NCBI RefSeq assembly: GCF_015709525.1
Contig: NZ_JADNRA010000014.1
Location: 1-64,000, forward strand
Length of the DNA: 64,000 nucleotides
Origin: Methylocystis sp. L43
Lineage (GTDB): Bacteria; Pseudomonadota; Alphaproteobacteria; Rhizobiales; Beijerinckiaceae
Direction: 5' to 3'
The notes beneath the pieces are model-generated. The model had not been told where the DNA came from, searched no databases, and was given only the letters and a program-made list of their open reading frames with translations. Both the position numbers and the translations under genes were made by a program. This document shows positions 24,647 to 36,188 of this stretch, in pieces (position 1 is the first letter of the stretch; each line of letters starts with the position of its first letter).

Positions 24647-26373
24647 AAACCTTCGCCACGCTCTACCGGCGCATCGACGCCGCGACGTCGACGCAGCATA
24701 AGAGACAGGCGCTGATCGACTATCTGCGCCTTGCGGTCGGCGATCCGGAGCAATACGCCAGCGCCGCCTGGACGGTTTATTTCCTCGCCGGCGGCAAGCC
24801 CCGCCAGATGATCTCGACCAAGCTCCTACGCCAGCTCGCCTTGGAGGCGACGGACCTGCCCGAGTGGCTCATTGACGAGTGCTATCACAGCGTCGGTGAT
24901 CTCGCCGAGACTCTGGCGCTCTTGCTGCCGCCGGCGACGCGCGTGGAAGACGCGCCGCTCGATCTTTGGATGAATGAACGGCTATTGCCCTTGCGCGAGC
25001 GCGATGACGCTGAGCGGCTCGCGGCGCTGCGCGATTGGCTCGACGCCATGCCCTCCGACGACCGCTTGCCGTTCTTTAAGCTCGTCACCGGCGAATTGCG
25101 CATCGGCGTCTCGAAGCTGCAAATGACTCACGCGATCGCCCAGGCGACGGAGCTTGACGCCAAGCTCGTCGCGCAGCGGATGATGGGCTACACGCAGGCG
25201 AACCGGGCGCCTCAGGCGCAGGATTTCGTCGCGCTCGTCGCGCCAGCCGAAGCGGGCGAAGACGGGCGGCCTCTGCGCGGCCAGCCTTATCCGTTCTTTC
25301 TCGCGCATCCGCTTCAGGCGCCGCTTTCGGCGTTTCCAGAACTGCTCGGCCCCGTCGACGACTGGCTTGTTGAATGGAAATTCGACGGCATACGCGCGCA
25401 GTTCATTCATCGCGCCGGAGAGTGGTGGCTATGGTCGCGCGGCGAAGAGCTGGTGAGCGACAGCTTTCCGGAGCTCGCCGCGCTCGTCGAGTTTCTGCCT
25501 GACGATATTGTCCTCGATGGCGAGCTCATCGTCGTCGCGCCCCGTTCGGACGCGCGTTCCGCGGTGGACGATCTTAGCGATCTGCGCCCCTTTTCTGAAT
25601 TGCAGCAGCGTCTCGGACGCAAGGTTCTCACGCCAAAAATGCTGCGCGACAGGCCAGTGGCGCTGATCGCTTATGACCTGCTCGAGAAAGATGGCCGCGA
25701 TCTGCGTGAAAGGCCGCAGCGGGAGCGACGCGCGCTCCTCGAGGAGGTCGTGTCGCGCGCGCATTCTACCGCGATGCAGGTCGGCGCCGATTTGCCGCTG
25801 CGACTGAGCCCAGCACTGACGCAACCCGATTGGGAGTCCTTTGCAAGACAGCGTGAAGAGGCGCGGGCGCGCGGCGCCGAAGGCATGATGCTGAAGGCGA
25901 TGGGCGCGCCTTATGGCGTCGGACGCCAGAAGAGCGGCGCCAATCTGTGGTGGAAATGGAAGCTCGATCCAATGAGCGTCGACGCGGTGCTGATCTACGC
26001 CGCGCGGGGTCATGGGCGCCGTTCGGGCGTTTACAGCGACTACACATTCGGGGTGTGGAGCGGCCCGCCGGAGCAGACGGACCGCACGCTGCTGACCTTC
26101 GCCAAGGCCTATTCCGGGCTTTCGGACGAGGAGATGCGCAAGGTCGACGCGACGATCAGAAGGACGACGATTGAGAATTTCGGGCCGGTGCGTAGCGTGC
26201 GCCCGACGATGGTTTTCGAGCTCGGCTTCGAGGGAATTGGCGCCAGCAACCGCCACAAAAGCGGCATCGCGGTTCGCTTTCCAAGGATGTTGCGCTGGCG
26301 ACAGGACAAGCCCGTGGAGGACGCCGATACGATCGAGGCCCTACGCGCGCTACTGCCTGGCGGCGGCGCATGA
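24643..26373 (+). CDS. ATP-dependent DNA ligase (cisplatin damage response type)
   Basis: 576 residues. N-terminal DNA-binding helical domain (to about 210), then adenylation domain with the lysine motif [11 protein letters not shown] and DGELIV, and OB-fold domain with [16 protein letters not shown] and FVRSVRP-like closing motifs (FELGFEGI). This is the stand-alone ATP ligase of the exonuclease-ligase-helicase-PdeM cluster, different from LigD at 14.9-17.5 kb. ATGA overlaps join it to both neighbours. Confidence 0.93.
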
Positions 26374-28850
26374 GCGGACGACGCGCCAAACAGTCCGCCG
26401 TGAAAACACTGTTGGCGGCGCGGGGCTGGAAGCCGTTTCGCTTCCAGCAAGAAGTGTGGCGCGAAATGGCGAAGGGACGCAGCGGCCTGCTGCACGCGAC
26501 GACCGGCGCCGGCAAAACTCTGGCCGTTGCCCTCGGCGCCTGGCAGGCGCTCGCCGACGATGCGGAAGCGCCGCCACGACTCTGTGTTCTCTGGATCACG
26601 CCGATGCGGGCGCTGGCCGCGGACACCTCCAAGGCGCTCAACGAGGCGTTCGGCGGTCTCTCCGCGCATGGCCAGCACTGGACGGTTGGCGTTCGCAGCG
26701 GCGATACGTCCTCAGCCGAGCGCGCCCGGCAGGCGCGTCGTCCGCCCAGCGTGTTGATCACGACGCCGGAGAGCCTGTCGCTCATGCTCTCGCGAGCCGA
26801 CGCTCGCGAATATCTCGGCGCGATCAGATGCGTTGTCGTCGACGAGTGGCACGAACTCATCGGCAATAAGCGCGGCGTGCAGACGCAGCTCGCGCTGGCG
26901 CGGTTGAAGCGCCGGCGTCCCGATCTGCTGATTTGGGGCATGTCGGCGACGCTTGGCAATCTTGAAGAAGCAAAGCGCGTCCTGCTCGGTCCAACCGATG
27001 CGCCGCATGGCGCGGTTGTGGCGGGCGGCGTGCGCAAGGAAATCGTCATCGACACGCTGTTACCGGAAGATTTCGCGCGCTTTCCCTGGGCCGGGCATCT
27101 TGGGATCAAAATGGCGCCGCAGGTGGTCGCGGAGATTGATCAATCTCCGACGTCGCTCATTTTCACCAACACGCGTTCGCAGGCTGAAATCTGGTATCAC
27201 AATCTCCTGCGCGCACGGCCGGACTGGGCAGGGCTCATCGCGGTTCATCACGGATCGCTGGCGCGGGAATCGCGCGATTGGGTTGAGCATGGACTTAAGT
27301 TCGGCAAGCTCAAGGCGGTCGTCTGCACGTCCAGTCTAGATCTTGGCGTCGATTTTCTTCCCGTCGAACGCATCCTGCAGGTCGGCTCGCCCAAGGGCGT
27401 CGCGCGCCTTCTGCAGCGCGCCGGCCGCAGCGGCCATGCTCCGGGGCGCACGTCGCGCATCACGCTCGTGCCGAGCCATGCGCTCGAGCTTGTCGAATCA
27501 TCGGCGGTGCAGCAGGCGGTGCGGGAGGGCCGCATCGAAAGCCGCCGCACGCCGAATGCGCCGCTCGACGTGCTGGTGCAGCATCTCGTCACGATCGGAC
27601 TGGGCGGCGGCTTCAGGCCTGACGAATTGCTCGCGGAAATTCGTTCGACGGCCGCCTATGAACATCTCTGTGACGAGAATTGGCGCTGGTGTCTCGACTT
27701 CGTGAGCGGCGGCGGGCCGAGCCTTTCGGCCTATCCCGAATATCGCCGCTGCGGTCCTGACGCTGACGGCGTGTGGCGGGTCGCCAGCAAGCAGATCGCT
27801 TTGCGCCATCGGCTCAACATCGGGACGATCACGGCGGACGCCAGCGTTCTCGTTCAATACGGACCCGCGCCGCCGGGTCAAAAGCTCGGCGTCGTGGAGG
27901 AAAGCTTTATCGCGCGGCTCAAGCCAGGCGACAGCTTCTGGTTTTCAGGACGGCTGTTGGAGTTCGTGCGCTTGCGCGACCTTGTCGCCTATGTGCGTCC
28001 GGCGAAAACGCGCAGCGGCGCGGTTCCGCGCTGGGACGGCGGGCGAATGCCGCTTTCGACGACTTTGGCGGACGCCATGGTGGAGCAATTGCAGCGCGCG
28101 GCCGAGGGGCGTTATGACACGCCGGAGCTGCGGGCGGCTGAGAAAATGCTGAGATTGCAAGCGCGCTGGTCGCATCTGCCGACGCCGACGACGTTGCTTG
28201 CCGAAACATTGAAAAGCCGCGACGGCTGGCATTTGTTTGTGTATCCTTTCGCGGGCCGCAACGCGCATATCGGCATGGCGAGCCTGATCGCCTGGCGGGC
28301 GGCGCAGAAGACCGCGAGCACGTTCTCGATCGCCGTGAACGATTACGGCTTCGAGCTTTTGAGCGCCGACCCGCGCGACTGGGCCGCCACGCTGCCGGAA
28401 CTGATTGCGCCGCGCGCCATTGATGATCTGACGCATGAAACGCTCGCGAGCCTGAACGCTGCGGAGCTGGCGCGCCGACGTTTTCGTGACATTGCGCAGA
28501 TCGCCGGTCTCGTCGTGACGACCTATCCCGGACAACATAAGAGCGTGCGCCAGTTGCAGGCCTCTTCGAGCCTGTTCTACGACGTCTTTCGCAAATTCGA
28601 TCCGGAAAACGGGTTGTTGCGCCAGGCTGAGCGCGAGGTCCTGGAAGACGCGCTCGACATCGCGCGTCTTGCCGAAAGCTTCGAGCGGCTGCAAAATAGA
28701 GAGATCGTCCATGTCGCGCTACAGCGCTGTTCGCCGCTCGCTTTTCCGCTGATGGTGGAGAGAATGCGCGAGCGCCTCAGCAATGAAACGCTCGCGGCGC
28801 GCATCGAGCGCATGATTTCGCAGTTGGAGCGGGCCGCGGACAAATGTTAG
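26370..28850 (+). CDS. Ligase-associated DNA damage response DEXH-box helicase (Lhr-like)
   Basis: 826 residues. Superfamily 2 motifs: Walker [16 protein letters not shown], motif [11 protein letters not shown] (DEWH, a DEXH variant), motif [11 protein letters not shown], and motif [10 protein letters not shown], followed by a large C-terminal Lhr-type region. It starts four bases inside the ligase gene end and overlaps pdeM by seven bases. Family members translocate on single-stranded DNA and act with the adjacent ligase and nucleases in repair. Confidence 0.94.
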
Positions 28851-29542
28851 AGCCTGACGAGACTTTGCGGAGCGAAGGCGCCGGCCTCGTCTCCTCTCAC
28901 GAGCATCGCGGCGTCGTTTTGCTGCCGCAGCGCGCTGTCTGGCGCGTTGAGACGCGCACGCTGTTCATCGCCGACGCGCATCTTGGCAAGGCGGCGACAT
29001 TTCGCGCGCTCGGCCAACCGGCGCCCAAGGGAACGACGCGCGACAATCTCGCCCGGCTCGACGCGCTGGTCGACCGATTCAATCCCATCCGACTCGTTTT
29101 CTTGGGCGATTTGTTTCACGCGCGGCAGGCGCATGCGCCGGGGGTGGCGGCCGCCTTTCTCGATTGGCGCAGGCGCCGCGCTGCGTTGCGACTGACGCTC
29201 GTGCGCGGCAATCATGATCGGCGCGCAGGCGATCCGTCGGAACAGTTCGGAATCGAGCTTGTTGACGAACCCTATGACTCAGAAGGGATCGTCGCGCGTC
29301 ATCACCCGCTTGCGTCCGACGAATGCGAAGGGCAGGGGGCGACCATTCTTGCGGGGCATTTGCACCCTTGCGTACGGCTGAGCGGGGCGGCGCGCGACAG
29401 CGTTCGTCTTCCCTGCTTTGTGCTGCAGGCGCGACAGATCGTGCTGCCCGCCTTTGGCGCTTTCACGGGCGGCGCGCTGGCGCGTGGGCGGGGTGTCAAA
29501 ACCTGCGCGATCGTCGACGAACGACTGCTCGTTGCCGGCTAG
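28844..29542 (+). CDS. pdeM: Ligase-associated DNA damage response endonuclease PdeM
   Basis: 232-residue calcineurin-like metallophosphoesterase. Metal motifs: [30 protein letters not shown] and [10 protein letters not shown]. Last gene of the repair module. It overlaps the helicase end and converges on the ATP-grasp gene with a four-base overlap. Confidence 0.92.
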
Positions 29543-30897
29543 CTGCGCGTTGCATGAATCGCGGCGACAGGTGGGGAAGGCGGGCGAGCGAGCAATTCGA
29601 TCTCGTCTCCCAGCAGGCCAAGGCCATCGACTTTGGCGTAATCCGCTGCGATCAGCCGTTCTCCAATGTCGCGTCGGTAACGCATGTTGGGCATATGCAC
29701 GCGCTCAATCAGCCGATAAGCGTCGCGACGCGCGCTCTGGATCGTTCGCCCGCAGCCCGTCGCCACCATCGTCCAGCCATAGGCGCCGGCGGTGACAAGC
29801 TGGCCGTTGTCGAGAGCCACTTCGCAATAATGCAGATGTTCCTGGTCTCTGCGGGACAATGCGCCGTCAAAGAGTATCGGCATGCCGATCGGCTCTTGCG
29901 CCTGCCGTCGCGAATAGGGGAAAGGCGGCACGGTTAGGACGACCCCGACCGAGAACCCGTCATCGACATCCAGATGATCGTGATCGCGCCGGACCATCGC
30001 CTCAAACAATTCCGCCCAGGACGTTCGCTGTAACGGCGACAGAATGGCGAAGCCGGGATAGCCGAATCTGCAGGTGAACTCGAGCGGCCAGATACCTTGC
30101 TCATTGACGATGGTGTTGAGGTTCACATAGCCGCAATGGCCGTGACGTTTGAGTAAGGGCGCGATCCTGGCCAGAGTGTTTTCAAAAAAGAGGGTCGAAC
30201 GCTCGAATGTGGCGACCGTGCCCATCTCTCCCGTCAGCTCTCCAAGGTCGCCCGGAAAGAAGCGCTTGTGCTCCCAGTCGAGACAGGCGGGCCGTAAAAA
30301 CTTCTCGCCGTCGAAATACGCGCCGACGCCCATCTCGACGCCATCTATGAAATCCATCAGGACGAAGCCGGCTTCGTCAGCTGGAGTGTCGGGCAAATTT
30401 TGCAGCAGCGCGGAAATGTCGCGTCCGTCGCCGAGACCGCCGACGAAGTTGCGATGCGCCAAATCTGGCGAATTGAATTTTAGGACATAGCGTCCGGGGC
30501 GCTCGCGAAGAAAACGCCAGCCGTCCTGCCGGTTCGGAAAGTAGTGGGTCGCCGCAGTTGAGAGGCCAAGCTCAGCAAGAAGTCTCTGCGCGTAGGCCCG
30601 GTCGATTTCGAGCCGGTCGCCGAAGGCGCTTCCGCCGATGACATTGAATCCATCTTTGCGCAACTCGTCCTGCACGCCGCCAAACGAGACGTTTTCGAAT
30701 AGAATGATTCCCTCGTCCCCGGCGCTCTTCACCCATTGCAGTTCCGAACGCCAATCGTCTGTCTTAGCGATCATTCCATTCAGAATGCTCTGACAAGGCG
30801 GCGCGTCGATGAAGACATTGACCTCATGTCCTTCCGCCGAAAGTCTAAGGTAGAGTGCGGCAAGGTCGCAGTAATTCCCAATCCCCAGAACCCGCAT
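29539..30897 (-). CDS. ATP-grasp ligase, PurD (glycinamide ribonucleotide synthetase)-like
   Basis: 452 residues beginning MRVLGIGNYCDLAALYLRLS, a Rossmann-like pre-ATP-grasp domain. Next comes an ATP-grasp domain with GRYVLKFNSPDLAHRNFVGG and the metal-binding FTCRFGYPG region where PurD has its ExRFGDPE-like motif. ATP-grasp enzymes join a carboxylate to an amine through an acyl phosphate. AGGAG lies six bases before the ATG at 30897. It is the last gene of the methyltransferase-HDO-ligase trio, 8 bases after the HDO gene. It diverges too far from true PurD for me to assign purine synthesis. Confidence 0.78.
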   Translation of the reverse strand: MRVLGIGNYCDLAALYLRLSAEGHEVNVFIDAPPCQSILNGMIAKTDDWRSELQWVKSAGDEGIILFENVSFGGVQDELRKDGFNVIGGSAFGDRLEIDRAYAQRLLAELGLSTAATHYFPNRQDGWRFLRERPGRYVLKFNSPDLAHRNFVGGLGDGRDISALLQNLPDTPADEAGFVLMDFIDGVEMGVGAYFDGEKFLRPACLDWEHKRFFPGDLGELTGEMGTVATFERSTLFFENTLARIAPLLKRHGHCGYVNLNTIVNEQGIWPLEFTCRFGYPGFAILSPLQRTSWAELFEAMVRRDHDHLDVDDGFSVGVVLTVPPFPYSRRQAQEPIGMPILFDGALSRRDQEHLHYCEVALDNGQLVTAGAYGWTMVATGCGRTIQSARRDAYRLIERVHMPNMRYRRDIGERLIAADYAKVDGLGLLGDEIELLARPPSPPVAAIHATRS

Positions 30898-30905
30898 GGA
30901 TGCTC

Positions 30906-31832
30906 CTAGGCCGCCGCTTCTCGCGGGGGCTCCATCTGCAGTCGGAAATGACGTCTGTAGCGTTCGAAACATCGCGCGCCATGCCAAAGCCGAAGAACGG
31001 CGCCTTCGCCGATCGCTTGCGCGCGGCGCGGGTCTTCCTCAAAGAGAGGACGCAGAACTTCACGATTCCACGCCTCGGAGTGTTTGACGTCGAGAATCGC
31101 ATGCAGCGAAAAATACTGACGCTGCTTGCCGGGGACTTTAAGCCGACGCAATCCACGCTCGACTTGAATCGCGCGTCCCGGCGCCGTCATCTCGATCGCG
31201 CCAAGCGCGCCGATCGAATGGAAGGCGTAGCGACGATTGCTGGCGAGCGCCACCATCATATTGCCGAGCGCGAGCGACTCGGGGCAGACGCGCTCGGGCT
31301 GCGCGTCAACGCCGAAATAGGCGGCGAGCCGCGTCAGCATCGGACCGTGCATGCCCTGCGCATTGCCTCGGCCCATTTCGTCCCAGTAATTTCGCGCCAT
31401 TTCGAGCTTGGGGGTCTGCGGCATCTTGATCTGGGTAAGCGCCACGAGATCGTCGAACCCTGCCTCGCCGGACACTTCCTGCTCAAGAAACCATTTCATG
31501 TCCTCGAAGCTCGCGAATCGCTCGAGCCAGGGGAACAGCGGATCGTTCTGACCTGGTCCATTCTCGGCAAGGCGCTCATACCAGTCCAGGAAGGCGTTGG
31601 CGTCGCTCGGAATATCGGCGACGAACGGCGCGATCGCCGCGCGAACGCTCTCCACATAGGCGATCTCCGCCTCGGCGAGCGCGGCGCGCGCATGCACATC
31701 GGCGCGCCAATCGCCGGAAGGCGTGAGAGGCTCGAGCCGTGCGCCGTTGCGTCGGGAAAGCTCTCTCTGGAAGCGCTCAAAAGCTGGGCCGTTTAGTGTT
31801 GGGGCCAGGGCGATCCAATCGGGGTCACGCAT
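30906..31832 (-). CDS. Iron-containing haem-oxygenase-like diiron redox enzyme (HDO superfamily)
   Basis: 308 residues, all-helical, with the Haem_oxygenas_2 pattern: acidic residues in WFLEQEVSGEAG (E117/E119/E123), E152 and H162 in YWDEMG...MHGPML, E214 in GALGAIEMTAP, and H244, D248, H251 in HAILDVKHSEAW. Such proteins (UndA, BesC, SznF relatives) use a di-iron centre and O2 to cleave or oxidise amino or fatty acids. It lies 3 bases after the methyltransferase and 8 before the ATP-grasp gene, so the three form one operon. The substrate is unknown. Confidence 0.8.
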   Translation of the reverse strand: MRDPDWIALAPTLNGPAFERFQRELSRRNGARLEPLTPSGDWRADVHARAALAEAEIAYVESVRAAIAPFVADIPSDANAFLDWYERLAENGPGQNDPLFPWLERFASFEDMKWFLEQEVSGEAGFDDLVALTQIKMPQTPKLEMARNYWDEMGRGNAQGMHGPMLTRLAAYFGVDAQPERVCPESLALGNMMVALASNRRYAFHSIGALGAIEMTAPGRAIQVERGLRRLKVPGKQRQYFSLHAILDVKHSEAWNREVLRPLFEEDPRRAQAIGEGAVLRLWHGARCFERYRRHFRLQMEPPREAAA

Positions 31833-31835
31833 ATG

Positions 31836-32843
31836 TCAGCCGTCTTTCTTGATGTTGAGGAAGACTGCGGCGATGCGGTCAACGTTGTCATAGGCGGGGC
31901 GCTCCAGCTCTTCGCCGAAGACGTCGGGATCGACTTCCTCGTAATCGAAAGTTACCGGCGAAGCGTCGAGGATTGGCGTCACGGCGGCAAGGAACTGGTC
32001 CACGCCGCCGACAATCGGCGAGCCGGTATAGAGCAGCAGCCTTCCGCTTTCCGTCAGACGCGGGACGCCCTCCCGTACAATGTCGACGGAAAGGGCGATG
32101 CCAAACTCGCCGCCCCCATGGCGATAAAGACGTTGGTAGTCATCGACGAGATAGGGCGGATTGGCGATGATGTAGTCGAACGGGCCGCCAGCGTTCTGGA
32201 AGAGATCGCTGTGAATAGCCCGTGTGCGCTTCAAATCGTTCAACGAAGCGTTGACGCGCGCATATCGCACCGCTTGGGGATTGATGTCGGCGAGCAGCAG
32301 CTCGACGCCGGGTCTCACCAGGCTCGCGGCGAAAATCCCGCCGGCGCCGCTGCCGCACCCGATGTCGACGAGACGGCGGGGCGCCGAGGCTGAGAGAGGT
32401 TGTGAATTAAGGACCGATTCGATGCAGCGCGCGAAACGGTAAGTGTCAGGTCCGAAGAAAACCGAATCGGCGGCGTCCGTGGGAAAGGCCGAGTGCGCAA
32501 AGAGCTGGTTCTTGAGAGTCGAGAATCGCACCTTGCTGCGCAAGAGACCGTTGCAACGCGCTAGCGCCTTCGCCTCAGCAAGTGTGCGCAACACCGGCGC
32601 CGGCAGATCGCTCGCAGAAAAAGGCAGACTCCATCCGAATGCTCGCGTCAAATTCGATCCATCCACTGCCGGACGTTGCACGACGCGGCTATGCGTTAGC
32701 GGCGTCGTGGTGGTGAACCGGTAGTTCTGGTCCCGAAGGAACGCGCCCAGCCATAGCAACGCCTCGTCCGCCACGCTCAGATCTTGGTGAGAAGCGTTCG
32801 ACGGCCCGGTAGCCGTCTCGTCAGAGCAGAGATCCAGTTGCAT
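31836..32843 (-). CDS. SAM-dependent methyltransferase with NPPY motif
   Basis: 335 residues. The C-terminal class I methyltransferase domain has motif I VDIGCGSGAGGI, motif II LLLADINPQA and the catalytic IIANPPYLVDD, which places it with N-methyltransferases (HemK/PrmC, RlmG-like) acting on amide or amino nitrogens. The N-terminal 130 residues (PAPVLRTLAEAKALAR, FFGPDTYRF) form an accessory domain. First gene of the trio, 123 bases after eutC on the same strand. It could be a translation-factor or rRNA enzyme, but the tight linkage to an HDO and an ATP-grasp enzyme argues for small-molecule methylation. Confidence 0.8.
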   Translation of the reverse strand: MQLDLCSDETATGPSNASHQDLSVADEALLWLGAFLRDQNYRFTTTTPLTHSRVVQRPAVDGSNLTRAFGWSLPFSASDLPAPVLRTLAEAKALARCNGLLRSKVRFSTLKNQLFAHSAFPTDAADSVFFGPDTYRFARCIESVLNSQPLSASAPRRLVDIGCGSGAGGIFAASLVRPGVELLLADINPQAVRYARVNASLNDLKRTRAIHSDLFQNAGGPFDYIIANPPYLVDDYQRLYRHGGGEFGIALSVDIVREGVPRLTESGRLLLYTGSPIVGGVDQFLAAVTPILDASPVTFDYEEVDPDVFGEELERPAYDNVDRIAAVFLNIKKDG

Positions 32844-32966
32844 CAATCGCCAACGCCCCAAGCGCCAAGAGAGGTCTCAACTCACGGCGATGACGATAGT
32901 TCCGATAGGTTTGTGCTTGCGCCAAAGTTGGATCGTAAAGCCTGCGGCAAGCGCGAGAACGGGTAG

Positions 32967-33752
32967 CTAACTCTTGGCGTCGATCGTGCGCAGTTCTCCC
33001 GATGGGAGCGTGTTCGCTTCGTCTTTGAGATCAACGCCGGTCAGCTGGCGTCGGCGCGCTTCGTTGCAAAGATAAATCAGCTTGTGCGCGGCGTCGGCAT
33101 AGGAAAGCCCTTGCGGGCGGATATTCGAGAGGCAGTTGCGCTCGGCGTCGGTGCGGCCGACGCGCGGCGCAAATGTGAGATAGACGCCCATGCTGTCGGG
33201 CGAGGAGAGTCCAGGTCGTTCGCCGATGAAAACCGCCACAAGCCTTGCCCCGAGTGTCTCGCCGATATCGTCGCCGAGCGCCACGCGCCCCTGTTCGGCG
33301 AGAACGATCGGCGCGATTTTCCACGATGTTTGGCCGAGAGATTGCAGCGCTCTTTCGAGCACCGGAAGTGCGTGCCGGGCGATCGCGCGGGCGGAAAGTC
33401 CTTCGGCGATGACAAACGCAAGGTCGTAATCGCCCGCGAGGGCTTTGAGATGCTGGCGGGAATCGTCGTCGAGTTTTCGGCCAAGGTCGGGACGCAGCAG
33501 AAAGCTTCGCCGATCGCGGGCGGCGCTCTTCACGCGGACGGCCGTCAGCCCGCGGAAGGTTAACTCGTCGAAGAGCCGGTCGGCGTCGAGTCGCTCTTCA
33601 ACCGCATCTCGCGCTTCGGCATGCGCCAGCTGGAAATCGAGCGTAGCGCGCGTCGTCAGCGCCGCTCCGGCGCGTGGCAGGAAAATTCTCGCCGGCGTCG
33701 CCGAACGGAGGATCGCAATCTTGTCGAGAGGCGCCGGGCGATCGTCGGCCAT
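32967..33752 (-). CDS. eutC: Ethanolamine ammonia-lyase, small subunit
   Basis: 261 residues. RATLDFQLAHAEARDAV, FVIAEGLSARAI, VLAEQGRVALGDDIGE, IGERPGLSSPDSMGVYLTF and ERNCLSNIRPQGL are the EutC hallmarks. With EutB it forms the adenosylcobalamin-dependent enzyme that splits ethanolamine into acetaldehyde and ammonia. It starts two bases after the eutB stop. No microcompartment or eut regulatory genes are nearby, so this is the minimal cytosolic version. Confidence 0.94.
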   Translation of the reverse strand: MADDRPAPLDKIAILRSATPARIFLPRAGAALTTRATLDFQLAHAEARDAVEERLDADRLFDELTFRGLTAVRVKSAARDRRSFLLRPDLGRKLDDDSRQHLKALAGDYDLAFVIAEGLSARAIARHALPVLERALQSLGQTSWKIAPIVLAEQGRVALGDDIGETLGARLVAVFIGERPGLSSPDSMGVYLTFAPRVGRTDAERNCLSNIRPQGLSYADAAHKLIYLCNEARRRQLTGVDLKDEANTLPSGELRTIDAKS

Positions 33753-33754
33753 CC

Positions 33755-35134
33755 TCAGGCTCTTTCGAGAAGCGGCGCAAAGGATGCAGGCAGCGCCAGC
33801 GGCCGCAATTCGCCACGCGCGTCCGTCAAACCGACGTCAGCAAGCCATTGCGCAAATTCGGGAGCGGGCGCCAGATTCAGCATGCGCCGAACGGCAAGCA
33901 CGTCATGATAGGAGGTGCTCTGGTAATTCAGCATGATGTCGTCCGCGCCGGGGACGCCCATGACGTAATTAACGCCGGCGACCGCGAGCAGCGTCAGCAG
34001 ATCATCCATATCGTTCTGGTCGGCTTCGGCGTGATTGGTGTAGCAAACGTCACAACCCATCGGCAGTCCAAGCAGTTTGCCGCAGAAATGGTCTTCGAGC
34101 GCCGCCCGCGTGATCTGCTTGCCGTCGAAAAGATATTCGGGGCCGATGAACCCGACGACGGTGTTGACCAGCAGAGGATCGAACGCGCGCGCGACGCCAT
34201 AGGCGCGGGCTTCAAGCGTCTGTTGATCGCAGTTCCAGTGGGCATTGGCCGAAAGCGCGCTGCCCTGGCCAGTCTCAAAATACATGACATTGTCGCCGAC
34301 CGTTCCGCGCTTGAGCGCAAGCGCCGCTTCGCGCGACTCGCGCAACAACGCGAGGTCGATCGCGAAGCTCGAATTGGCGGCTTGCGTGCCGCCGATCGAT
34401 TGAAACACAAGATCGACTGGCGCATGTCGCTCCATCAGCTGCAGCGTCGTCGTGACATGGGCGAGCACGCAGGATTGCGTCGGAATGCTGAGCGTCTCGC
34501 GCAGCTCATCGAGAAGGCTCAGGAGTTCGTAGCACTGCTCCGGACTGTCGGACGCTGGATTGACGCCGATGACCGCATCGCCATTGCCGAGCAGAAGCCC
34601 GTCGATGGCGCTTGCGAGGACGCCGCGCGCATCATCGGTCGGATGGTTGGGCTGAATGCGCGATGACAGCCGCCCGCGCAGGCCGAGCGTATTGCGAAAT
34701 TTCGTGATGACGCGCCGCTTTGCGGCGACCAGGATCAGGTCCTGGTTGCGGCAGATCTTCGAGACCGCTGCGGCCATTTCAGGCGTCAGTCCGAAGGTCA
34801 AGGCGGCGAGCGCGTCCTCATCCACGGCGTCGGAGAGAAGCCAGTCGCGAAATTCGCCGACGGTCAGCGAAGCGATCGGCGCAAAGGCGTTTCGGTCGTG
34901 GCCGTCGAGGATCAATCGCGTGACCTCGTCCTCTTCGTAGGGGACAAGCGCTTCGTTCAAGAACACGCTCAAGGGCAGATCGGCGAGGGCCATCTGCGCA
35001 GCGACGCGCTCCGCGGCGCTCGCCGCCGCAATGCCGGCGAGGCAGTCGCCGGAACGCAATGGGGTCGCCTTCGCCATCAGCGTTTTAAGGTCTGGGAACC
35101 TGTAGCTCGTTCCAAGTATCGTCGTCGCATACAT
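33755..35134 (-). CDS. eutB: Ethanolamine ammonia-lyase, large subunit
   Basis: 459 residues with the EutB TIM-barrel motifs: SRIQPNHPTDDARGVLAS, GDAVIGVNPASDSPEQ, FQSIGGTQAANSSFAIDLAL, MYFETGQGSALSANAH and CDVCYTNHAEADQNDMDDL. It carries the ethanolamine site and the B12 cofactor interface. It leads a minus-strand run (eutB, eutC, methyltransferase, HDO, ATP-grasp). The 163-base gap to the divergent kinase gene shows no B12 riboswitch that I can recognise. Confidence 0.95.
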   Translation of the reverse strand: MYATTILGTSYRFPDLKTLMAKATPLRSGDCLAGIAAASAAERVAAQMALADLPLSVFLNEALVPYEEDEVTRLILDGHDRNAFAPIASLTVGEFRDWLLSDAVDEDALAALTFGLTPEMAAAVSKICRNQDLILVAAKRRVITKFRNTLGLRGRLSSRIQPNHPTDDARGVLASAIDGLLLGNGDAVIGVNPASDSPEQCYELLSLLDELRETLSIPTQSCVLAHVTTTLQLMERHAPVDLVFQSIGGTQAANSSFAIDLALLRESREAALALKRGTVGDNVMYFETGQGSALSANAHWNCDQQTLEARAYGVARAFDPLLVNTVVGFIGPEYLFDGKQITRAALEDHFCGKLLGLPMGCDVCYTNHAEADQNDMDDLLTLLAVAGVNYVMGVPGADDIMLNYQSTSYHDVLAVRRMLNLAPAPEFAQWLADVGLTDARGELRPLALPASFAPLLERA

Positions 35135-35297
35135 GGCCAGACCTCGAAAGACCTTCTCACAGGCTATGGCGCCCCAGCGGACATGTCACTGTCCGCGCGT
35201 AAGGTTTTCCCCAAGGGCCTACCTAGCCCATGGCCTTTGCGCGCCAGCCGCATATATTAGCTCAGTCAGAGTTTGTTATATTGCCCCGCCGGAGCCG

Positions 35298-36188
35298 ATG
35301 TCAGCCCATACCGCAGATCCAGAAACTCTGATACGCGCGCTTCCGCTCTGGCGCGGCCCGATCGAGATCGCGCCGTTGCTCGGCGGCATCACCAACAAAA
35401 ATTATATCGTCAAGGATGGCGATCGATCCGTCGTCGTTCGCCTTGGCGGCGACATTCCGGTTCATGGCGTCATGCGCTTTAACGAATTGGCGGCGAGCAG
35501 GGCCGCGGGCGCCGCCGGAATATCGCCGAAAGTTCTGTATGCCGCGCCGATGGCGATGGCGCTCGAATATATTTCCGGCCGCACCTATGAGCCGGAAGAC
35601 ATGCGGGCGAACCGCAGGCGCTGTGTCGATCTGATCAAGCGCGTACATCGTGAGGTTGCGCTGCATTTGCGTGGGCCGACCCTGGCGTTCAACGTCTTCC
35701 ATATCATTCGCGACTATGCCCATACGCTTGTCGAGGATAAAAACCGGCTGGCGGCCAAATTGCCGCGCTTGCTCGCGGCGAGCGAAATCTTGGAAAAAGC
35801 GACGGGCGCGATCGACCTTGTCTTCGGCCATAATGATCTCCTTGCCGCCAATTTCATCGACGACGGGCGTCGGCTTTGGCTCGTCGACTGGGATTATGCG
35901 GGATGGAATACGCCGCTGTTCGATCTCGGCGGACTCTCGTCGAACAATGGCTTTGACGCCGCGGATGACGACGCGATGCTCGAGGACTATTTCGAAGCGG
36001 CGCCGGCCGATGCATTGCGGCGCCGCTTCAAGGCGATGCTTTGCGCGTCGCTGTTGCGCGAAGCGTTGTGGAGCCTTGTCTCGGAACGTCGGTCGTCGAT
36101 TGATTTCGATTACGTCGCTTACTCAGAACAAAATCTGACGCGCTTCGATCAGGCCTGGGCGGCGTTTCAGCAGATGGAAAGAGCATGA
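35298..36188 (+). CDS. Choline/ethanolamine kinase-like phosphotransferase (LicA type)
   Basis: 296 residues of the aminoglycoside-phosphotransferase/choline-kinase fold: LLGGITNKNYIVKDG (nucleotide loop), VVVRLGG, the catalytic loop FGHNDLLAANFIDDG (Brenner HxDxxxxN as HNDLLAAN) and the metal motif LVDWDYAGW. The likely substrate is choline or ethanolamine, which fits the divergent eutBC genes. The ATG at 35298 has GGAG upstream; a 55-codon extension into the intergenic region is unlikely. It overlaps the next gene by four bases. Confidence 0.85.
   Translation: MSAHTADPETLIRALPLWRGPIEIAPLLGGITNKNYIVKDGDRSVVVRLGGDIPVHGVMRFNELAASRAAGAAGISPKVLYAAPMAMALEYISGRTYEPEDMRANRRRCVDLIKRVHREVALHLRGPTLAFNVFHIIRDYAHTLVEDKNRLAAKLPRLLAASEILEKATGAIDLVFGHNDLLAANFIDDGRRLWLVDWDYAGWNTPLFDLGGLSSNNGFDAADDDAMLEDYFEAAPADALRRRFKAMLCASLLREALWSLVSERRSSIDFDYVAYSEQNLTRFDQAWAAFQQMERA

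What the first reader, a model, noticed from the sequence alone, without database searches (positions are those of the whole stretch)
29539..32843. Methyltransferase, di-iron HDO oxidase and ATP-grasp ligase operon: candidate undescribed biosynthetic pathway
Three genes with 3- and 8-base spacing encode an NPPY N-methyltransferase, a haem-oxygenase-like di-iron enzyme with all expected ligand residues, and a PurD-like ATP-grasp ligase. HDO plus ATP-grasp pairs are known in unusual amino-acid pathways such as the bes cluster, but I know of no described set with this exact content. The trio has no transporter or peptide precursor, so the product may be a small cofactor-like or signalling molecule.
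Basis: partly seen in the sequence, partly recalled or inferred. Interest (0 to 1): 0.75.

Follow-up and report, generated by a model that had tools for sequence, protein, structure and literature searches.

The report
Uncharacterised three-gene amino-acid N-oxidation pathway
Three neighbouring genes in a methane-eating bacterium encode enzymes that most likely methylate and oxidise a nitrogen of an amino acid and then join it to another molecule; the same gene families travel together across several bacterial phyla, but their product is unknown.

Summary
In detail: a methyltransferase (MT), a haem-oxygenase-like di-iron oxidase (HDO) and a PurD-like ATP-grasp ligase lie in one operon-like row (spacers 3 and 8 bp) in a Methylocystis genome. 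Among 385 Alphaproteobacteria the families are rare and nested (HDO 6, MT 5, ligase 4). The HDO model matches the N-oxygenases HrmI, RohS and SznF over nearly full length, better than BesC; the MT model matches natural-product N-methyltransferases. In other lineages further partners appear: cyanophycin genes, a probable second ATP-grasp, an NRPS module, or an arginine-deiminase/DDAH-like hydrolase (once fused to the MT). Best reading: an N-methylation plus N-oxygenation core for an arginine-family amino acid, completed by an exchangeable ATP-dependent ligase. Substrate, reactions and product are inferred. HDO plus ATP-grasp clusters are a known class (mangotoxin; at least 25 types reported), so this is a new variant of a known kind. 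My searches of open-licence papers found none on this set, but the supplement listing those types could not be read.

The parts
31836..32843 (-). MT: class I SAM-dependent methyltransferase, HemK/NPPY type, 335 aa
   Evidence: Pfam MTS; below all HemK/PrmC cut-offs; NPP and DPD(V/I)FGxEL conserved; model matches AerE and gentamicin N-methyltransferase over residues 22-335
30906..31832 (-). HDO: haem-oxygenase-like di-iron oxidase, 308 aa
   Evidence: Pfam PF14518 3.7e-39; HrmI 3.9e-28; fold match HrmI Z 32.2
29539..30897 (-). PurD-like ATP-grasp ligase, 452 aa (ATG at 30897; the longer TTG-started ORF overlaps the HDO)
   Evidence: GARS_A and GARS_C over cut-off, purD model far below cut-off; start placed by the 12-base match-to-match distance kept in the six Methylocystis loci
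26370..28850 (+). context: ligase-associated DNA damage response DEXH helicase; lost or gained together with the trio in relatives
   Evidence: TIGR04121 1080 bits; empty site
28844..29542 (+). context: PdeM nuclease, converging on the ligase gene; same indel segment
   Evidence: TIGR04123 208.6 bits; empty site
32967..35134 (-). context: eutC and eutB (ethanolamine ammonia-lyase) upstream on the same strand; present also in genomes without the trio

Best explanation
The genes form a minimal amino-acid tailoring pathway. MT methylates a side-chain nitrogen (amide, ureido, guanidino or amine) of an arginine-family amino acid. HDO, a di-iron enzyme of the HrmI/RohS/SznF type, uses O2 to oxidise a side-chain nitrogen (to a hydroxylamine, nitrone, oxime or nitro level). 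The PurD-like ATP-grasp activates a carboxylate with ATP and couples the modified amino acid to a second partner through an amide. MT and HDO are the core; the ligase is exchangeable between lineages. Shown here: gene identity, co-occurrence, predicted folds, conserved residues. Inferred: N-chemistry of the HDO (about 0.7), methylation at nitrogen (about 0.7), arginine-family substrate (about 0.45), amide product (about 0.6), and the order of steps.
For: Co-occurrence: among 384 other Alphaproteobacteria the 4 MT genomes are all among the 5 HDO genomes (P 5.6e-9) and the 3 ligase genomes are all among the 4 MT genomes (P 4.3e-7) (genomes are not independent). MT in 12 of 16 HDO genomes tested, including unlinked copies. 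HDO model: HrmI Z 32.2, RohS 25.4, FlcD 23.3, SznF 22.8 over nearly full length; BesC 18.5 over 76-298. MT model: AerE Z 26.0 and gentamicin N-methyltransferase Z 24.3. Arginine link: ArgZ/DDAH-like gene near the HDO in 6 of 50 loci, fused to MT in one plasmid, with F-x-x-D, His and Cys invariant in 6 of 6; cphA, isoaspartyl peptidase, cyanophycinase, MT, HDO in one row in Sphingobium yanoikuyae; cphA and cyanophycinase near HDO-MT in a Caulobacter MAG. Exchangeable ligases: PurD-like in 17 of 50, a probable second ATP-grasp in 3 of 50, cphA in 3 of 50 with one a fragment, an NRPS A-T-TE gene in L098. HDO and MT distances correlate over 26 loci (Spearman 0.60, 0 of 2000 permutations reach it).
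Against: No substrate was tested. Fold does not fix HDO chemistry; the review passages stress that HDOs with similar ligand sets do different reactions, and FlcD, a close fold match, excises a carbon (listing). No arginine gene adjoins the trio in the window; the link comes from other lineages, and in those 6 loci one partner (L021) is only 27% like the probe. That partner has Asp where ArgZ has Asn71 (residue label recalled; alignment). MT was not found in 4 of 16 HDO genomes, and 15 of 50 loci have no MT in the fetched flank. HDO and ligase distances do not correlate (0.26, 434 of 2000, 6 loci). Eleven of the 12 Sphingobium plasmid records with MT have no HDO on the same plasmid.
Confidence: 0.45

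Rival explanations
1. Same kind of pathway, but the HDO works on carbon (desaturation, C-C cleavage or lyase chemistry) of a basic amino acid or Arg peptide, as BesC and MboA do; the MT then caps a product.
For: MboA, in a cluster of HDO, two ATP-grasp ligases and an arginine deiminase, desaturates the Arg of Leu-Ala-Arg (PMC13185094, passages); HrmI and BesC both use lysine with different outcomes (PMC13108848 passages).
Against: Best fold matches are HrmI, RohS, FlcD and SznF; BesC aligns 210 residues against 297 for HrmI. No MboB-like reductase gene adjoins the trio. MboA itself could not be compared.
Confidence: 0.25
2. Nitrogen storage or turnover: the enzymes modify arginine or cyanophycin dipeptides for salvage or mobilisation, not for a secreted product.
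For: cphA, isoaspartyl peptidase, cyanophycinase, MT, HDO, dicarboxylate symporter in one row; cphA/cyanophycinase in L025, a cphA fragment in L042.
Against: Cyanophycin genes in only 3 of 50 loci and not next to the trio in the window; rare and patchy distribution and an indel within one genus fit accessory metabolism better. The cyanophycin survey PMC10206079 has no match to 'redox enzyme' or 'heme oxygenase' in its main text.
Confidence: 0.12
3. Modification of a protein or ribosomal peptide: MT (AerE-like) and HDO act on a peptide side chain.
For: AerE works on a peptide substrate (entry title); SET-domain genes lie near four loci (L031, L080, L092, L116).
Against: No precursor gene between or beside the three genes in the window; ATP-grasp, cphA and NRPS partners fit amino acids. 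No systematic search for short precursor ORFs in other loci was made.
Confidence: 0.12
4. Chance neighbours with unrelated housekeeping roles (PrmC-like MT, PurD, stray HDO).
For: Each family is common in the wide sense.
Against: Nested co-occurrence, repeated linkage in different orders and strands, separate purD, MT below every PrmC/HemK cut-off.
Confidence: 0.02

Closest known systems
HrmI / BelK (lysine N6-oxygenases)
   Same: Nearest solved relative of the HDO by sequence and fold; aligned metal-ligand pattern; oxidation of a basic amino acid's side-chain amine is described in PMC13108848 (passages).
   Different: About 25% identical; the clade has its own invariant motifs around 92-100 and 122-126; partners here are MT and ligase. 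The cluster partners of HrmI and BelK are recalled, not looked up.
SznE/SznF (streptozotocin)
   Same: Logic of methylated arginine plus HDO N-oxygenase; SznF acts on N-methyl-arginine (PMC10849742 and PMC13108848, passages). SznE as the methyltransferase is recalled.
   Different: No cupin domain in this HDO.
RohS (azomycin N-oxygenase)
   Same: Second-best fold match, Z 25.4.
   Different: 15-17% identical; the azomycin pathway is recalled and was not looked for.
Mangotoxin mbo cluster
   Same: HDO, ATP-grasp ligases and an arginine deiminase working on an Arg peptide (PMC13185094, passages).
   Different: No hit for 'methyltransferase' in the paper's main text; two ligases and the reductase MboB.
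AerE and gentamicin N-methyltransferase
   Same: MT model matches both over nearly its whole length.
   Different: 15-20% identical; substrates are a peptide and aminoglycosides.
PurD (GAR synthetase)
   Same: Shares ATP-grasp core positions such as K140, H210, K211, G216, D217, T222, G223, M225, G226, E273.
   Different: 112.8 bits against a cut-off of 288; purD GGREHA replaced by NYCDLAA near the start.
ArgZ / DDAH (guanidine hydrolases)
   Same: Nearest solved relatives of the hydrolase partner of other lineages.
   Different: Asp at the ArgZ Asn71 position; no such gene beside the trio in the window.

Membership tests
HDO superfamily | haem-oxygenase-like helical fold | tested here: met
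   model pLDDT 88.0; HrmI Z 32.2, SznF 22.8, UndA 16.7
HDO superfamily | 3 His / 3 carboxylate ligands on the core helices | tested here: met
   E119, E152, H162, H244, D248, H251 invariant in 28 of 28 rows and aligned with HrmI; assignment as ligands is inference, no metal modelled
HrmI/BelK lysine N6-oxygenases | oxidation of L-lysine to 6-nitronorleucine | not testable with these tools
   needs an enzyme assay
SznF | C-terminal cupin domain behind the HDO | tested here: not met
   308 aa, only Haem_oxygenas_2 found
PurD / GAR synthetase | score over the TIGR00877 cut-off | tested here: not met
   112.8 of 288 bits; another gene of the genome scores 538.9
ATP-grasp ligases with GARS_A and GARS_C domains | both Pfam domains over their cut-offs | tested here: met
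   34.0 vs 27 and 41.4 vs 34.8 bits
PrmC/HemK release-factor methyltransferases | score over the TIGR03534 or TIGR00536 cut-off | tested here: not met
   66.6 of 199.1 and 50.3 of 115.5 bits
[quoted passage not shown]
   8-bp spacer; class as described in PMC13185094, passages
HDO plus ATP-grasp amino-acid clusters | this set being one of the 25 reported cluster types | not testable with these tools
   the list is in a supplementary figure that could not be opened
mangotoxin mbo cluster | MboB-type reductase with the HDO | tested here: not met
   the neighbours of the trio are eutC and pdeM

The most novel reading that the evidence does not exclude
The MT-HDO core makes a new N-methylated and N-oxidised arginine-family amino acid that different lineages build into small amides, NRPS products or even a modified cyanophycin-type polymer; in methanotrophs the N-oxidised product could bind a metal.
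Probability: 0.15. Interest if true: 0.82.

Novelty: new variant of a known kind. Interest (0 to 1): 0.58.

Why it matters
It offers a very small, testable pathway (three genes) for side-chain nitrogen chemistry, found from Alphaproteobacteria to Kofleriaceae and Planctomycetota and carried on plasmids in several genera. The exchangeable ligases and a guanidine-hydrolase domain fused to the MT narrow the likely substrate to a few amino acids, so one in vitro screen could settle it. Only about a dozen HDOs had been functionally validated by the 2026 review (PMC13108848, passage), so a methylation-coupled branch would be a real addition.

Tried and rejected
Rejected: ordinary purD and prmC; BesC-type assignment; phage carriage (no match in the phage collection). 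Pfam scans of two conserved Hyphomonadaceae flanking genes gave no family. The first ligase/purD alignment held wrong ORFs for some purD rows, so repeats it with five purD sequences.

Weak points kept out of the argument. The second ATP-grasp type (L074, L075, L079) rests on a RimK hit below cut-off in L079 (17.2 of 21 bits), weak matches to D-Ala-D-Ala ligase and cyanophycin synthase (1.9e-4 and 3.4e-4) and similarity of L074 to L079 (45%); L074 itself gave no ATP-grasp hit in Pfam, so I call it probable. The NRPS gene in L098 runs off the contig and its adenylation code was read by eye with PheA numbering recalled from memory; position 239 is Glu, which I recall as common for basic amino acids. 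No MT was found in that genome.

Literature: no paper on this set in the listings or passages; these cover open-licence PMC papers only. No paper was read whole: PMC13108848, PMC13185094, PMC10849742 and PMC10206079 were seen as passages; the rest as listings.

Rows dropped before the 50-locus count: the window itself (L002, L006), repeat fetches of places already counted (L007, L009-L014, L047-L049, L081-L083 and similar short fetches, L096, L105-L107), L008 (a separate Methylocystis genome with the full trio, left out by oversight), ligase-only places (L101-L103), MT-only places, and four of six similar Komagataeibacter plasmids. The 17 ligase loci include L091 with only the first 43 residues at a contig end and L104 with the first 141. 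L019 and L041 come from one MAG.
Full report
Observation. The window holds three minus-strand genes as described: MT 32843-31836, HDO 31832-30906, PurD-like ligase 30897-29539, with 3- and 8-bp spacers. The genome is a Methylocystis, judged from named relatives at 86-95% HDO identity.

(i) Synteny. In 61 genomes of relatives, 8 have the HDO (9 places), all in the same genus; all 9 places carry MT, HDO and ligase in a row, though one ligase is in two frames and one shows only its first 141 residues. So 29 of the 37 same-genus genomes of that call lack it: it is an accessory set. In named species genomes 29 loci were found; MT is in 23 of 29 and the ligase in 10 of 29. Leaving out the six Methylocystis loci, MT is in 17 of 23 and the ligase in 4 of 23, in taxa that include Sphingomonadales, other Alphaproteobacteria, Kofleriaceae, Polyangiaceae, Oligoflexia and Planctomycetota. 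Whole-genome searches found unlinked copies: MT in 5 of the 6 remaining genomes, and the ligase in three more, so 7 of 23 at 48-60% identity. (ii) PurD. The true purD is elsewhere (538.9 bits, cut-off 288); the window gene scores 112.3. Neither refutation holds.

More than chance. In 385 Alphaproteobacteria drawn evenly, the HDO (E up to 1e-40) was in 6, the MT (1e-20) in 5 and the ligase (1e-60) in 4, each set inside the previous one. Without the window's own genome the overlaps have P 5.6e-9 and 4.3e-7; genomes are not independent, so these are guides. G230, counted as without the ligase, has its first 43 residues at a contig end. In the phylum of the Kofleriaceae genome 5 of 282 have the HDO. 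On plasmids 15 of 41 matching records form the same clade (47.8-58.5% identity); the other 25 listed are at 35.1% or less and one was not listed. HDO and MT distances correlate over 26 loci (0.60, 0 of 2000 permutations), HDO and ligase over 6 loci do not (0.26, 434 of 2000); shared species history can also cause the first result.

What each enzyme is. HDO: nearest solved relative HrmI, 3.9e-28. The AlphaFold model (pLDDT 88.0) aligns to HrmI with Z 32.2, rmsd 2.4, 297 residues; RohS 25.4, FlcD 23.3 and SznF 22.8 follow, over nearly full length; BesC 18.5 with 210 residues. HrmI, RohS and SznF are N-oxygenases by their entry titles or the review; FlcD excises a carbon (listing). MT: the model (pLDDT 85.1) aligns over residues 22-335 to AerE, Z 26.0, rmsd 3.5, 303 residues, and to the gentamicin N-methyltransferase, Z 24.3, 269 residues; HEMK2 follows at 21.1 with 183 residues of the catalytic domain. 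Ligase: the ATP-grasp core is kept, the N-terminal purD motif is not.

Neighbours in other lineages. In 50 loci (dropped rows are told under Tried and rejected): MT within 2.5 kb in 35, none in the fetched flank in 15; PurD-like ligase in 17; ArgZ/DDAH-like gene in 6; a probable second ATP-grasp in 3; cyanophycin synthetase in 3, one a fragment, and only one of the three within 2.5 kb; 23 of 50 have at least one of these three ligase kinds within 5 kb. Without the six Methylocystis loci the counts are MT 29 and ligase 11 of 44. One HDO is followed after 11 bp by an NRPS A-T-TE gene (L098) and one HDO-MT pair by an AIR-synthase-like gene (L091). SET-domain proteins lie near L031, L080 and L092 and beside the unlinked MT L116. 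In Sphingobium yanoikuyae pKN1 the row is cphA, isoaspartyl peptidase, cyanophycinase, MT, HDO, dicarboxylate symporter. In a Legionella sainthelensi plasmid one 609-residue protein joins the DDAH-like domain to MT, next to HDO. Novosphingobium ES2-1 has HDO and MT on different plasmids.

Mechanism. The common core is MT plus HDO; an ATP-dependent ligase is often added but its type changes. The N-methyltransferase and N-oxygenase folds, with the arginine-linked partners, suggest methylation and oxidation of a side-chain nitrogen of an arginine-family amino acid, then amide formation. Substrate, order and product are inference. The DDAH-like partner keeps F-x-x-D, His and Cys in 6 of 6 but has Asp at the ArgZ Asn71 place, so I expect deiminase or DDAH-type rather than dihydrolase chemistry.

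Genome history. Six Methylocystis genomes without the trio were compared. In L168-L171 sequence matching the window up to 26,396-26,480 lies next to sequence matching from 32,876-32,965, so helicase, PdeM and the trio are missing together while the ATP-dependent ligase and exonuclease of that repair set remain (names). In L172 and L173 the gap is wider, from 23,366. The segment behaves as an accessory unit but is larger than the trio, and gain versus loss was not decided.

Comparison with what is known. PMC13185094 (passages) reports 1447 HDO sequences near an ATP-grasp and at least 25 cluster types, and solves mangotoxin, where HDO, two ligases and an arginine deiminase work on an Arg peptide. 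I could not see whether this trio is among the 25. The passages I saw of PMC13108848, PMC13185094, PMC10849742 and PMC10206079 do not describe it. Hence 'new variant of a known kind'.

Noticed in passing
window 26370-32876: The helicase and PdeM of the ligase-associated DNA damage response set are missing together with the trio in four compared Methylocystis genomes, while ligase and exonuclease remain.
   Followed up: partly
L125:3394-10589 (Agrobacterium vitis pRvVAT039a): A sister HDO beside a 2OG-Fe dioxygenase, a DapF-like epimerase, a fatty-acid desaturase-type protein and a molybdopterin enzyme; looks like another unusual amino-acid cluster.
   Followed up: no
L126 (Burkholderia stagnalis plasmid plas2): HDO near two ATP-grasp proteins and one biotin-carboxylase-like protein, a 2Fe-2S protein, a PLP decarboxylase and an MFS transporter.
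   Followed up: no
L176:4995-7186 and L177:4905-7150 (Sphingobium Tom plasmids): MT overlapping the start of a proton/glutamate or amino-acid symporter gene, with no HDO match on these plasmids.
   Followed up: partly
L098:7935-11779: NRPS A-T-TE gene (cut by the contig end) 11 bp after an HDO of this clade, in a genome where no MT was found.
   Followed up: partly
L041 and L019 (one Methylocystis MAG): Two copies of the trio in one MAG; in L041 the HDO has an internal TGA near its C-terminus.
   Followed up: no
L104:2431-2853 (genome G034): A more distant trio (HDO 59%) whose ligase matches only over its first 141 residues although the contig runs on for 0.55 kb.
   Followed up: partly
L175:4980-6296 (Halarchaeum plasmid): An archaeal relative of the ligase, 35% identical, with no MT or HDO among its annotated neighbours.
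   Followed up: no
window 35292-36188: Choline-kinase/APH protein that matches the GntI model at 145 of 357 bits, beside eutBC; probably an ethanolamine-related kinase.
   Followed up: no
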